Origin: Pseudomonas sp. WN033
GTDB taxonomy: Bacteria; Pseudomonadota; Gammaproteobacteria; Pseudomonadales; Pseudomonadaceae
Direction of reading: 5' to 3'
DNA: 64,000 nucleotides
Assembly: GCA_002287035.1 (NCBI GenBank)
Contig: NSKG01000003.1
Span: 124,001-188,000, forward strand
The position numbers were made by a program, and so were the translations under genes. Below the pieces are notes generated by a model. The model did not search any database. It was not told the DNA's origin and was given only the letters and a program-made list of their open reading frames with translations. Shown here piece after piece: positions 37,504-57,058 of the stretch. Numbering within the stretch: position 1 is the first letter of the stretch; the number at the start of each line of letters is the position of its first letter.

Positions 37504-38964
<1,461 letters not shown>

Positions 38965-38984
38965 TCGCACTGCGATCCTGACAG

Positions 38985-39010
38985 AAGGGCGCCTTATGGC
39001 GCCCTTTTTT
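38985..39010 (+). terminator. Rho-independent terminator of gltBD
   Basis: AAGGGCGCC / GGCGCCCTT stem with loop TTAT, running directly into TTTTTT. Standard intrinsic terminator 20 bases after gltD. Confidence 0.9.
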
Positions 39011-39031
39011 GTTTGGGTGAGAGTTGTGCCG

Positions 39032-39143
39032 GGTGGTGGCGGTGCTTGGCCTGGTCGGGACGCGCTACAAGCCGTCCATGGGGCTCGACGGCGCACATCC
39101 CTGTGCGCCGACGGTCCCGACCAGGCCAAGCCCCGCCGCCACC
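39032..39143. repeat. Structured repeat, copy A (112 nt)
   Basis: Outer arms 39032-39061 and 39114-39143 pair over 30 positions with two imperfections, one of them a G-T pair. Inside lie a 26-nt core (39063-39088) beginning CGCTACAAGCC and ending CCATGGGGCTCGA, then a 9-bp hairpin CGGCGCACA / TGTGCGCCG with loop TCCC, then ACG. The core itself can pair AGCC with GGCT, so the whole can form a three-way junction. Copy B lies 73 bases away in inverted orientation. Confidence 0.85.
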
Positions 39144-39216
39144 GCGAACTTCTCAGTTGTCTGCACGAAAACCCGCTTTTGTTCTGGTTTTTCCCGCAGC
39201 AGGCAAGGAATTGGCA

Positions 39217-39326
39217 AGCTGCATTGCCCCTCGTCTTTCCCGGACCGTCGATGGCCAAGGATGGCCATCGTCGAGCCCCATGGATGGCTTGTAGCGTGTC
39301 CGGGAAAGACGAGGGGCAGTGCGGCT
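39217..39326. repeat. Structured repeat, copy B (110 nt), inverted
   Basis: Same architecture as copy A, read on the other strand. Outer arms 39217-39245 and 39298-39326 pair over 29 positions (only G-T exceptions). The core at 39271-39296 is 25/26 identical to copy A. The inner hairpin CGATGGCCA / TGGCCATCG has a different sequence but the same 9-4-9 shape. Linker lengths (1 base and ACG) are the same. Confidence 0.85.
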
Positions 39327-39461
39327 AGATGCACAAAGGCGCAGAATCGGATCCACAAAGCTCGCCAAGCCTGAGGCGTGGCAGTTCGCCGCACCAGGCC
39401 TGATCTTTGCAATCAAATCCCGGTACAATGGCCGCTGATTCCGCAACTGGATACAGATCCC
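39327..39461 (+). promoter_or_regulatory. hemE upstream region
   Basis: Gap between the repeat pair and hemE. TACAAT at 39424-39429 is a good -10 element, about 33 bases before the hemE ATG, but no convincing -35 stands at 17 bases. Together with the terminator and the two repeats it accounts for the 497-base gap after gltD; I see no further gene there. Confidence 0.4.
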
Positions 39462-40544
39462 ATGACCGAACTCAAGAATGATCGCTTTCTGCGCGCCCTG
39501 CAGCGCCAACCCGTGGACGTGACCCCGGTCTGGATGATGCGGCAGGCTGGACGCTATCTGCCCGAGTATCGTGCATCGCGCGCTCGTGCTGGCGACTTCA
39601 TGGGGCTGTGCACCAATCCCGAGATGGCCTGCGAAGTCACCCTGCAGCCGCTTGAGCGCTACCCGCTGGACGCTGCGATCCTGTTCTCCGACATTCTCAC
39701 CATTCCCGACGCCATGGGCCTGGGGCTGTACTTCGAGACTGGCGAGGGTCCGCGCTTTCGCAAGCGTATCGACAGCGCCGCCGATATTGCCGCGCTGCCG
39801 ATTCCCGACCCCGAAAAGGATCTGGGCTATGTGATGAATGCCGTGCGCACCATCCGCCGTGAACTCAACGGGCGGGTACCGCTGATCGGCTTTTCCGGCA
39901 GCCCCTGGACTCTGGCCACCTACATGGTCGAGGGTGGCTCGTCGAAGGATTTTCGTAAGACCAAGGCCATGCTCTACAACGAGCCGGAAGCCATGCACCA
40001 GCTGCTCGGCAAGCTGGCCGATGCGGTGACCAGTTACCTCAATGGCCAGATCCTGGCTGGCGCCCAGGCGGTACAGATCTTCGATACCTGGGGTGGCAAC
40101 CTGTCGGCCGATGCCTACCAGAAGTTCTCGCTGGCCTATATGCGCAAGATCGTATCCGGACTGATTCGTGAGCACGATGGTCGCAAGGTGCCGGTGATTT
40201 TGTTTACCAAGAATGGCGGTCTGTGGCTGGAAAGTATTGCCGAGTCCGGCGCCGACGCGCTGGGCCTGGACTGGACCATGGATATCGGCGTGGCCCGTTC
40301 GCGGGTTGGTGCCAAGGTAGCCTTGCAGGGCAACATGGACCCGGCGGTGCTGTACGCCAGTCCGGATGCTATCCGCGCCGAAGTCGGGCGGATTCTGGCC
40401 AGTTACGGCAAGGGCAGTGGCCATGTTTTCAACCTCGGCCACGGGATTACTCCCGAGGTCGACCCAGCCCACGCCGGGGCCTTTATCGAGGCGGTACACG
40501 AATTGTCAGCGAAATATCATGATCCCTCTGCCATAGTGGTCTGA
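39462..40544 (+). CDS. hemE: Uroporphyrinogen decarboxylase
   Basis: Cytosolic haem-pathway enzyme of 360 residues removing four carboxyl groups from uroporphyrinogen III. Substrate-binding motifs [16 protein letters not shown] near the N-terminus, [12 protein letters not shown] (catalytic Asp), [16 protein letters not shown] and [13 protein letters not shown] near the C-terminus are complete. The ATG at 39462 matches the family N-terminus (NDRFLRAL). Confidence 0.97.
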
Positions 40545-49726: not shown

Positions 49727-49845
49727 ACGCAAGGAGCCAGCAGGAAGCAGCCCAAACAACATGGATTAAGGACAGTGCCCGGGGGGCACACCATTAGGGA
49801 TGATCAGGACCCGTTCTGCAAAGCCTCGCTTCGGCGAGGTTTTTT
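49727..49845 (+). ncRNA. Rsm-family sRNA (RsmY/RsmZ-like), sponge for RsmA/CsrA
   Basis: Non-coding RNA of about 119 nt; the 5' end is estimated from TAACAT (49715-49720) as -10. It carries six GGA motifs (first bases 49733, 49743, 49763, 49770, 49798, 49807), several in AAGGA, CAGGA or CATGGAT contexts, plus a hairpin GTGCCC / GGGCAC (49775-49789). The 3' end is an intrinsic terminator. Such RNAs titrate RsmA and so relieve translational repression of secondary-metabolism, biofilm and virulence genes. The GacA box upstream makes the assignment strong; which Rsm paralogue it is cannot be told. Confidence 0.85.
49824..49845 (+). terminator. Intrinsic terminator of the Rsm sRNA
   Basis: CCTCGC / GCGAGG with a TTCG tetraloop and TTTTTT immediately after. 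Confidence 0.92.
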
Positions 49846-56954: not shown

Positions 56955-57020
56955 ATGTCAGCGCTCAACGTGTTTTTCGCCCGAATGATTATTACCGCCA
57001 TTCCGATATTGGCGGGCTGA
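56955..57020 (+). CDS. Attenuator leader peptide for ilvA
   Basis: A 21-codon open frame too short for normal gene finding. Codons 11-19 read MIITAIPIL: four isoleucines, one threonine and one leucine in nine codons, with the Thr-Ala-Ile codons lying in the first arm of the attenuator. The product of the pathway (Ile) and the substrate of the enzyme (Thr) are thus both sensed. It starts 18 bases after a TAGATT that could be a -10. No strong ribosome site, only GAGG at 56949. Confidence 0.8.
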   Translation: MSALNVFFARMIITAIPILAG

Positions 57021-57058
57021 CACGCGTCCATCCCAACCCGCCCTCGAGGCGGGTTTTT
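56995..57058 (+). promoter_or_regulatory. Four-segment transcription attenuator before ilvA
   Basis: Segment 1 CCGCCA (56995-57000) pairs with segment 2 TGGCGG (57010-57015). Segment 2 GGCGGG (57011-57016) can instead pair with segment 3 CCCGCC (57037-57042). Segment 3 otherwise pairs with segment 4 GGCGGG (57048-57053), and TTTTT follows (57054-57058), making a terminator. A ribosome stalled on the Ile/Thr codons masks segment 1, so 2 pairs with 3 and the terminator does not form. The leader stop codon lies just after segment 2. Confidence 0.85.

What the first reader, a model, noticed from the sequence alone, without database searches (positions are those of the whole stretch)
39032..39326. 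Pair of folded repeats with a fixed core but covarying stems
Two elements of 112 and 110 nt lie 73 bases apart in opposite orientation between gltD and hemE. Read in the same direction both are: outer arm of about 30 nt, 1 base, 26-nt core, 9-bp hairpin with a 4-base loop, ACG, and the complementary outer arm. The core is 25/26 identical (CGCTACAAGCC, one R position, then TCCATGGGGCTCGA). The hairpins (CGGCGCACA against CGATGGCCA) and outer arms share almost no sequence beyond the GTCC/GGAC at the inner end, yet pair nearly perfectly in each copy. Such covariation means the fold, not the stem sequence, is kept. The core can also pair AGCC with GGCT, giving a three-way junction. Candidates are a structured mobile palindrome (REP/MITE-like), a site for a DNA-folding or relaxase-like protein acting on single strands, or an RNA element at a 3' end. 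I cannot tell whether the family is already described.
Basis: seen in the sequence. Interest (0 to 1): 0.75.

Follow-up and report, generated by a model that had tools for sequence, protein, structure and literature searches.

The report
Scattered hairpin RNAs sponging regulator CsrA
The two repeats belong to a family of folded elements found in dozens of copies in many gammaproteobacteria, whose 30-bp stem differs from copy to copy yet stays paired and whose two hairpin loops carry the motif known for binding the regulator CsrA/RsmA, so that, made as RNA, they would likely act as scattered decoys for that regulator.

Summary
The window pair (39032-39143 minus, 39216-39327 plus) belongs to a large family: 45 model matches in this genome, 25-30 in each of three genomes of other families, and at least one in 86 of 293 genomes sampled from the order, 33 of 274 from the class and 11 of 299 from the phylum, all 11 inside the class. 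Each copy is a 29-30-bp stem of nearly private sequence under a three-way-junction cap with two hairpins. Read on one strand, both loops are ANGGAN (153 of 164 parsed), the CsrA/RsmA site. In the stem, G-U outnumbers A-C on that strand (94:27, sites anchored without a model). Orthologous copies keep the cap while stem columns change together (36 of 37 paired). Most copies are single; neighbours are nearly always inverted. An own-genome subgroup sits in a 175-bp MITE. Best reading: strand-specific RNAs acting as dispersed CsrA/RsmA decoys, near Rfam TwoAYGGAY but below its cut-off. Expression, binding and effect are untested. Copies show no orientation preference relative to genes, and no promoter-like site was found at the window pair.

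The parts
39032..39143 (-). Element 1, complete 112-nt capped stem read on its GGA strand
   Evidence: R1 match 108 bits; RNA fold z -10.2
39114..39143 (-). Element 1, 5' arm of the 30-bp outer stem P1
   Evidence: pairs with 39032-39061
39086..39113 (-). Element 1, hairpin P3 with loop sequence ACAGGGATGT
   Evidence: 12-bp helix in A1/A4 counts; the energy model pairs the three innermost stem-side bases with the junction strand instead; loop motif
39070..39085 (-). Element 1, hairpin P2 with loop sequence CCATGGACGG
   Evidence: A1 alignment, loop motif
39062..39069 (-). Element 1, junction strand TGTAGCGC
   Evidence: A1 alignment
39032..39061 (-). Element 1, 3' arm of outer stem P1
39144..39215 (.). 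72-bp spacer of the inverted pair; spacers of other pairs are not alike
   Evidence: 25 spacers listed
39216..39327 (+). Element 2, complete 112-nt capped stem read on its GGA strand
   Evidence: R1 match 117.1 bits; RNA fold z -11.9; Rfam TwoAYGGAY 33.6 bits on the same strand, below its cut-off of 43
39216..39245 (+). Element 2, 5' arm of outer stem P1
39246..39273 (+). Element 2, hairpin P3 with loop sequence CCAAGGATGG
39274..39289 (+). Element 2, hairpin P2 with loop sequence CCATGGATGG
39290..39297 (+). Element 2, junction strand TGTAGCGT
39298..39327 (+). Element 2, 3' arm of outer stem P1
37546..38964 (+).
   Evidence: ORF and codon model; terminator scan
39378..40544 (+).
   Evidence: ORF and codon model

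Best explanation
Each repeat is one copy of a dispersed family whose conserved cap carries two ANGGAN hairpin loops on one strand, and when that strand is transcribed it likely binds the regulator CsrA/RsmA, so that the many copies together would act as a distributed decoy (sponge). Shown here: the family, its three-way-junction fold, the strand bias of stem wobbles, the near-invariant loops, the inverted arrangement of neighbouring copies, and conservation of the cap at orthologous sites while the stem changes in a paired way. Inferred: the GGA strand is transcribed (read-through or pervasive transcription; the window pair has no promoter-like site in a consensus scan), one CsrA/RsmA dimer bridges the two loops of a cap (GGA-GGA distance 22-25 nt in 156 of 164), and the 29-30-bp stem holds the cap folded and may protect it or mark it for RNase III. 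The private stem sequences are explained by drift under a pairing constraint, with DNA template switching inside the palindrome probably copying changes from one arm to the other. An inverted pair gives any transcript that crosses it one GGA-strand cap, whichever way it runs. A subgroup spreads as cargo of a 175-bp MITE whose 4-bp target duplications (TTAG, CTAG, CTAA) suggest an IS5-type transposase (recalled, not tested).
For: Covariation: 26 of 29 P1 pairs change on both sides among 29 copies; in 91 diverse copies 45 of 46 pairs do (shuffled mean 39.7, 1 of 500 as high) with covariation score 0.91 versus 0.19 shuffled and 0.10-0.14 slid. Loops: at least two GGA in the cap in 114 of 115, 90 of 91 and 106 of 110 copies. 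Where both loops could be parsed (164 of 190), both are ANGGAN in 153, and the A before N is kept in 164 of 164 P2 loops, including 44 where it faces no U. Three own copies (L119, L162, L168) contain the CsrA SELEX consensus RUACARGGAUGU exactly; in the A4 set most loops match 7-9 of its 12 positions and 20 of 188 match 11 (consensus from a passage of PMC7652899). Strand bias of P1 wobbles, GU vs AC: 121 vs 42 over five groups, the two smallest not significant alone; 154 vs 31; 94 vs 27, p=7e-10, without a covariance model; 75 vs 14 and 106 vs 15 for wobbles flanked by Watson-Crick pairs. Orthologs: 37 P1 columns changed on both sides, 36 paired in both; caps differ at 0-7 of 51-54 positions, most 60-nt flanks far more. 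The sub-threshold TwoAYGGAY matches lie on the same strand, and PMC4333381 predicts CsrA binding for TwoAYGGAY from the same motif (passages). The genome has one CsrA gene (PF02599), and RsmY lies in the window.
Against: No RNA was measured. No orientation preference within tandem genes (18 sense: 14 antisense; 15: 15), so a specific 3'UTR role in cis is not supported. The window pair follows a terminator-like hairpin and has no promoter-like site. The elements are missing where CsrA/RsmA is expected: 9 of 37 genomes of the genus and the 12 listed same-family genomes of other genera. Both strands of the window copies fold strongly, and the complement of element 1 is slightly more stable (-92.1 vs -90.8 kcal/mol). 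In hairpin P3 the raw count goes the other way (28 A-C vs 9 G-U in A4); 24 of the 28 lie at one outer position beyond the helix, and internal pairs are too few to judge (6:1 and 3:1). The conserved junction strand is not explained by CsrA binding alone. Strand-specific folding would also suit an ssDNA intermediate. Adjacent compensated columns (9 vs 5.0 expected, p=0.03) suggest that a DNA mechanism makes part of the covariation. In three of twenty flanks the DNA beside the element is nearly as conserved as the cap. In Xanthomonas RsmU, replacing the GGA motifs did not abolish RsmA binding (PMC7694677 passages).
Confidence: 0.6

Rival explanations
1. The elements are DNA parts of a mobile repeat (REPIN- or MITE-like): the folded single strand of the cap is the substrate of a transposase, the inverted pair is the mobile unit, and the GGA loops are protein contacts on ssDNA.
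For: Neighbouring copies are inverted with one polarity: 17 of 17 neighbour pairs in four genomes, 21 of 25 in named genera, recalling REPINs (PMC3116915 passages). One clean filled/empty site with a 4-bp TTAG duplication. Wobble bias would also arise if one ssDNA strand folds. Tandem array in G101.
Against: Most copies are single (own genome 41 of 45 matches). The arms differ from copy to copy, which plain copying would not give, while caps stay alike. The cap is conserved at orthologous sites long after insertion. The loops match the CsrA RNA site, including an A kept where it cannot pair. The TIRs of the MITE subgroup lie outside the element. In four genomes the only outward-facing neighbours 0.45-6 kb apart (G000:C18:440275/441540) enclose a 326-aa ORF that looks like a membrane transporter by eye, not a transposase.
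Confidence: 0.2
2. Stable 3' roadblocks: the long stem protects upstream mRNA from 3' exonucleases or limits read-through, and CsrA/RsmA is irrelevant or only tunes it.
For: By a crude gene caller nearly all copies lie between genes (6 of 90 units and 1 of 90 overlap a called ORF) and few between divergent ones (8 of 62 resolved singles and 0 of 21 pairs; 3 of 44 and 0 of 19). Very stable folds.
Against: A roadblock needs neither ANGGAN loops nor a conserved junction strand. Wobble bias to one strand without orientation bias to genes does not fit a role that depends on gene direction.
Confidence: 0.12
3. Selfish repeat with no host role: recent copies keep a fossil cap, and the pairing of arms is only DNA template-switch correction of a palindrome.
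For: Multi-column compensated blocks such as G022/G026 E+; the mechanism is published (PMC8794818, abstract and outline seen). Some copies are decayed or deleted between close species.
Against: Cap conservation against diverged flanks at orthologous loci. Strand-specific wobble bias in many genera. Template switching alone would not favour one strand of the element.
Confidence: 0.08

Closest known systems
TwoAYGGAY RNA (Rfam RF01731, clan CL00106)
   [quoted passage not shown] same strand; listed for gut metagenomes, gammaproteobacteria and Clostridiales (PMC2864571 passage); predicted to bind CsrA (PMC4333381 passages)
   Different: No copy examined reaches the Rfam cut-off (best 33.6 and 35.2 bits vs 43; none at gathering). 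Loops are ANGGAN, and both are AYGGAY in only 37 of 164. A different conserved junction strand, no long P2, dozens of copies per genome and MITE carriage, none of which appears for TwoAYGGAY in the passages I saw.
RsmX/Y/Z and CsrB/C sponge RNAs
   Same: GGA hairpin loops; titration of CsrA/RsmA as the likely role
   Different: Those are one to a few dedicated sRNA genes with several GGA hairpins (recalled); here many dispersed two-loop copies, with no promoter-like site at the window pair (other copies not scanned)
RsmU (3'UTR-derived RsmA-binding sRNA of Xanthomonas campestris, PMC7694677, passages)
   Same: RsmA-binding RNA made from a 3' region
   Different: Not this family as far as tested: no R1 match directly downstream of the comEA-like gene in four Xanthomonas and one Stenotrophomonas genome (one of the five has a copy about 1.3 kb further on). 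RsmU's own sequence was not at hand.
REP/REPIN repeats
   Same: Extragenic, high copy number, inverted neighbours, a tandem array
   Different: REPs listed in PMC2817692 carry a GTAG/GTGG head before a short palindrome; here that tetranucleotide is not conserved, the element is a 112-nt capped stem, and most copies are single. In G101 a GTAG REP-type repeat lies beside each cap as a separate unit
MITEs with IS5-type targets
   Same: About 175-bp unit, 16-bp inverted ends, 4-bp target duplications in the own-genome subgroup
   Different: Only a subgroup; the window pair has no such ends and I did not find them around copies of other families by eye

Membership tests
TwoAYGGAY RF01731 | Score at or above the curated cut-off (43 bits) | tested here: not met
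   33.6 bits, 35.2 bits; no match at gathering for the window or for 38 loci holding copies
TwoAYGGAY RF01731 | Two hairpins with AYGGAY loops on one outer stem | tested here: not met
   Two hairpins on one stem: yes. Loops ANGGAN in 153 of 164 parsed, both AYGGAY in 37 of 164
CsrA/RsmA-binding RNA | ANGGAN in hairpin loops, two sites within reach of one dimer | tested here: met
   153 of 164 parsed of 190; spacing 22-25 nt in 156 of 164
CsrA/RsmA-binding RNA | Physical binding and titration | not testable with these tools
   needs EMSA, CLIP or a reporter
CsrA/RsmA-binding RNA | The RNA strand carries the constraint | tested here: met
   Outer stem: GU over AC on the GGA strand, 94:27 without a model, 121:42. 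P3 has too few internal wobbles to judge
REP/REPIN | Conserved GTAG/GTGG head next to a short imperfect palindrome | tested here: not met
   The junction strand reads TGTAGCG, TGCCGCG, TTACAGCG, TCACGGCG and others
REP/REPIN | Inverted doublets as the common unit | tested here: inconclusive
   Neighbours are inverted: 17 of 17, 21 of 25; but most copies are single (41 of 45, 13 of 25, 19 of 29, 22 of 30)
REP/REPIN | RAYT (Y1 transposase) in the genome, linked to the repeat | not tested
MITE | Terminal inverted repeats and a target duplication at a filled/empty site | tested here: met
   Own-genome subgroup only: G000:C17:275247-275420 with TTAG on both sides, empty in G028; matching 4-mers around L116, L117, L165, L167 read. 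Not met for the window pair
Integron attC site | Conserved outer boxes around a variable centre | tested here: not met
   Here the centre is conserved and the outer arms vary; attC definition recalled

The most novel reading that the evidence does not exclude
Gammaproteobacteria carry a class-wide, partly mobile family of 'capped-stem' RNAs: a constant two-site CsrA/RsmA-binding cap on a fixed-length (29-30 bp) stem whose sequence is private to each locus. Spread singly and as inverted pairs through tens of intergenic sites, they form a genome-distributed sponge that sets free CsrA/RsmA from the summed read-through transcription of the chromosome.
Probability: 0.35. Interest if true: 0.9.

Novelty: new variant of a known kind. 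Interest (0 to 1): 0.8.

Why it matters
If right, the Csr/Rsm system is titrated not only by dedicated sRNA genes but by dozens of dispersed copies, which would change how free CsrA/RsmA is estimated and would give a repeat family a host role. The constant cap on a hypervariable stem of fixed length, with orthologs between species, is also a good natural test of how paired stems evolve (selection on RNA versus DNA template switching). It gives a motif that can be looked for at once in existing RNA-seq and CLIP data.

Tried and rejected
Known RNA family: Rfam at gathering finds none of the copies examined; at low threshold only sub-threshold TwoAYGGAY on the right strand among chance hits to other families. 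Phage or plasmid origin: no match in either collection for the window region or for one MITE unit at the limits used; a 60-nt end gave two chance matches in Mycobacteroides plasmids. RsmU of Xanthomonas as a member: not supported, though RsmU's own sequence was not compared. Stems made from the target site at insertion: considered because arms are private and of fixed length; not favoured, because orthologous copies show the same stem drifting in paired steps. No clean empty site of a private-stem copy was found, so it is not formally excluded. A clean empty site for the window pair: not obtained. G028 has an internal deletion within the pair, G026 and G022 show only the left element, and L046, L054, L060 show none. 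Parent transposon of the MITE: not found; the lone TIRs looked at belong to decayed copies or to another repeat; no transposase family was searched. Orientation relative to genes: no preference. Promoter at the window pair: none in a consensus scan. Spacers are not alike; a GCAC excess on both flanks is unexplained.

Weak points of the counts. R1 was built on GGA-loop copies, so loop counts on its matches lean towards GGA, and ANGGAN was counted only where two GGA hairpins could be parsed. The named loci were found with an exact 29-nt cap pattern that includes the P2 loop, so cap identity and P2 conservation there are inflated; the stem-pairing test is not affected by this. Genome counts are lower bounds (12-150 candidates scored per genome), include the own genome, and the order, class and phylum samples overlap; how many of the 299 phylum genomes lie outside the class is not told. 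Rows dropped: one search kept 29 of 40 core matches; one search dropped 5 low-pairing copies and duplicates; one search used 94 of 110 for stem counts; one search folded 61 distinct of 82 sites, 16 did not fold and 5 were duplicates or too near an end; one search parsed 164 of 190. Other mismatches are not rare in stems (83, 163, 125); some come from indels put out of register. The three gltD-hemE comparisons share genomes, and some G028 contexts are orthologs of own ones. Gene calls are from a home-made codon model. Literature: searches (open-licence PMC papers; listings seen) showed no description of this family; subscription papers are not held. Of papers I saw passages of PMC4333381, PMC2864571, PMC7652899, PMC7694677, PMC2817692 and PMC3116915, and abstract and outline of PMC8794818.

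Full report
What is in the window. The key step was to read the other strand. In that orientation each element is: a 30-nt arm; a hairpin P3 (12 bp with the junction-side CG pairs) with an NGGA loop; directly after it a short hairpin P2 with an NGGA loop; a conserved junction strand (TGTAGCGT in element 2); and the complementary arm. Both copies fold on the GGA strand into the same three-way junction (z -11.9 and -10.2). There the energy model pairs the three innermost bases with the junction strand instead of lengthening P3, and it puts the P2 GGA in an 8-nt loop. The complementary strands also fold well (z -9.6 and -10.2), so energy alone does not choose the strand. A terminator-like hairpin follows gltD at 38983-39008, and no promoter-like site was found in 38960-39470.

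The family. A covariance model R1 from 29 ungapped copies of the genus, chosen for good pairing from 40 core matches, found 45 matches in this genome, the window pair included, 43 of them full length. It matched 32 of 58 sampled relatives, 28 of them among the 37 genomes of the genus, 86 of 293 genomes of the order (40 of 119 genera), 33 of 274 of the class, and 11 of 299 of the phylum sample, all 11 inside the class. Three genomes of other families carry 25, 29 and 30 matches. These are lower bounds, since only 12-150 candidates per genome were scored; each tally includes the own genome and the samples overlap. An exact 29-nt pattern of the cap hit at least 119 stretches in the genome collection. 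The 80 shown carry names such as Stenotrophomonas, Xanthomonas, Microbulbifer, Marinobacter, Oceanisphaera, Rheinheimera, Alcanivorax, Halopseudomonas and Shewanella. A few are MAGs labelled otherwise, such as Klebsiella pneumoniae and a Patescibacteria bin; I did not check those labels. The 12 listed genomes of the window's own family but other genera had no match.

The fold is kept, the stem is not. In 91 diverse copies 94.9% of cells pair, against 35-39% when partners are slid, and 45 of 46 pairs show changes on both sides (shuffled mean 39.7). Among named genera the 5' arms agree at 37% of positions on average; equal-length caps agree at 64%, a figure raised by the pattern used to find them. 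Pairing falls from 0.82 at column 28 to 0.50 at column 31 and 0.32 at column 32 counted from the junction, so the stem has a fixed length of about 29-30 bp although its sequence is private. At orthologous sites (ten comparisons, three of them sharing genomes) 37 P1 columns changed on both sides and 36 are paired in both species; 34 changed on one side, 11 of these still paired. Caps differ at 0-7 of 51-54 positions, and the 60-nt flanks at 3-25 of 39-60 aligned positions with gaps; three 3' flanks (G016/G023 twice, G011/G026) are nearly as conserved as the cap. So these copies have evolved in place under a pairing constraint. Blocks such as three adjacent compensated columns with no other change (G022/G026) and an excess of adjacent compensated columns (9 vs 5.0, p=0.03) point to DNA template switching as a partial source of the compensation, a mechanism described in PMC8794818 (abstract and outline seen). 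Covariation alone therefore overstates selection on RNA.

One strand is folded. A mismatch between arms that is G-T on one strand is C-A on the other, so such mismatches tell which strand is under constraint. On the GGA strand G-U exceeds A-C 121 to 42 over five groups (two small groups not significant alone) and 154 to 31 in 94 copies of named genera. When sites were anchored by the exact cap pattern and the arm chosen on Watson-Crick pairs only, it was 94 to 27, p=7e-10, in 61 folded sites of 82, beside 125 other mismatches. Counting only wobbles flanked by Watson-Crick pairs gives 75 to 14 and 106 to 15. In hairpin P3 the raw count runs the other way (28 A-C to 9 G-U in A4, 10 to 7 in A5), but 24 and 7 of these A-C lie at one outer position beyond the helix, and the internal pairs are few (6:1 and 3:1). 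Copies are balanced relative to gene direction, so a transcription-linked mutation bias does not explain the stem result. It shows strand-specific folding; it does not by itself separate RNA from a single DNA strand.

The loops are CsrA/RsmA sites. The cap holds at least two GGA in 114 of 115, 90 of 91 and 106 of 110 copies. Where both hairpins could be parsed (164 of 190), both loops are ANGGAN in 153. The leading A stays where it cannot pair with the base opposite (44 of 164 P2 loops). P3 stems of 59 different 6-nt sequences carry the same loop. Three own copies contain the SELEX consensus RUACARGGAUGU exactly, which I read in a passage of PMC7652899; most loops of the A4 set match 7-9 of its 12 positions. 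PMC4333381 (passages) used this motif to predict that TwoAYGGAY, the nearest Rfam family, binds CsrA. The genome holds one CsrA gene and RsmY lies in this window. This is the basis for the decoy reading. Binding, expression and effect are inferred.

Arrangement and spread. Most copies are single: 41 of 45 matches in the own genome, 13 of 25, 19 of 29 and 22 of 30 in three others. Where two lie within 450 bp they are inverted with GGA strands pointing outwards: 17 of 17 in those four genomes, and in named genera 21 of 25, with 3 convergent and 1 tandem. By a home-made gene caller 6 of 90 and 1 of 90 units overlap a called ORF and the rest lie between genes; among tandem genes the GGA strand of single copies is sense or antisense equally often (18:14; 15:15). 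A pair gives every crossing transcript one GGA cap, which fits a decoy that works in either direction; this is inference. In the own genome a subgroup sits in a unit of about 175 bp with ends GGGAAACACTGATTAA (59 such ends with up to 2 mismatches, none in the reversed control). At G000:C17:275247-275420 the close relative G028 is empty, with TTAG duplicated around the unit; matching 4-mers (TTAG, CTAG, CTAA, CTAA) flank L165, L116, L117 and L167 (read). That is MITE transposition; an IS5-type enzyme is suggested by these targets (recalled). The window pair has no such ends. At its locus two relatives hold only the left element, one has an internal deletion, and three show neither.

Judgement. 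The family, the fold and the strand bias of the stem are firm. That the element works as RNA is likely. That it binds CsrA/RsmA is probable from the loops. That the copies together matter for the cell is open. It works like a CsrA/RsmA sponge and resembles TwoAYGGAY, but fails that family's score and loop definition, so I file it as a new variant of a known kind. No description of this dispersed family turned up in the listings of searches, which cover open-licence papers only.

Noticed in passing
window 49731-49843 +: RsmY sRNA (Rfam RF00195, 58.3 bits) about 10 kb from the pair; Pseudomonas sRNA P9 at 56985-57057.
   Followed up: no
L354 1788-3152 (G101:C1): Six tandem units of 227 bp, each holding a capped stem on the same strand and one GTAGGAGCGGCTTCAGCCGCGA REP-type repeat.
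   Followed up: partly
L131, L171, L173, L174, L175 (P2); L174, L023, L026, L006, L268 (P3): Some copies carry structured insertions at the tip of P2 or P3; by eye the P3 module (CTCCTGCATTTT plus a CCGCCATCC-type hairpin) recurs in several species and occurs in both orientations.
   Followed up: partly
L177 1480-1775, L172 2950-3230, L163 1690-1990: The same GGGAAACACTGATTAA end is followed by an unrelated sequence (with GGGATTGCRCGGAGATT in L177 and L163), so another repeat seems to share the MITE ends.
   Followed up: no
L003 1446-1531, L021 1446-1531: Fused halves of two caps in opposite orientation, probably from deletion within an inverted pair.
   Followed up: partly
flanks of the elements: GCAC is enriched on the GGA strand on both sides of the stem (52 and 43 of 115 in the genus set, shuffled 12 and 14; 28 and 28 of 105 in named genera, shuffled 13 and 16). 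The genus set includes related MITE copies; no explanation.
   Followed up: partly
L345 from 1761 +: The region after the comEA-like gene of Stenotrophomonas maltophilia SJTL3 looks like a row of GGA-loop hairpins, possibly an RsmU-like RNA with more sites (by eye).
   Followed up: no
L056 and L258: The G035 contig and the named record of Pseudomonas saudimassiliensis have the same length (3338867), which hints that the window's genus includes that species.
   Followed up: no
L118 1327-1404 -: SAH riboswitch beside one own-genome copy.
   Followed up: no
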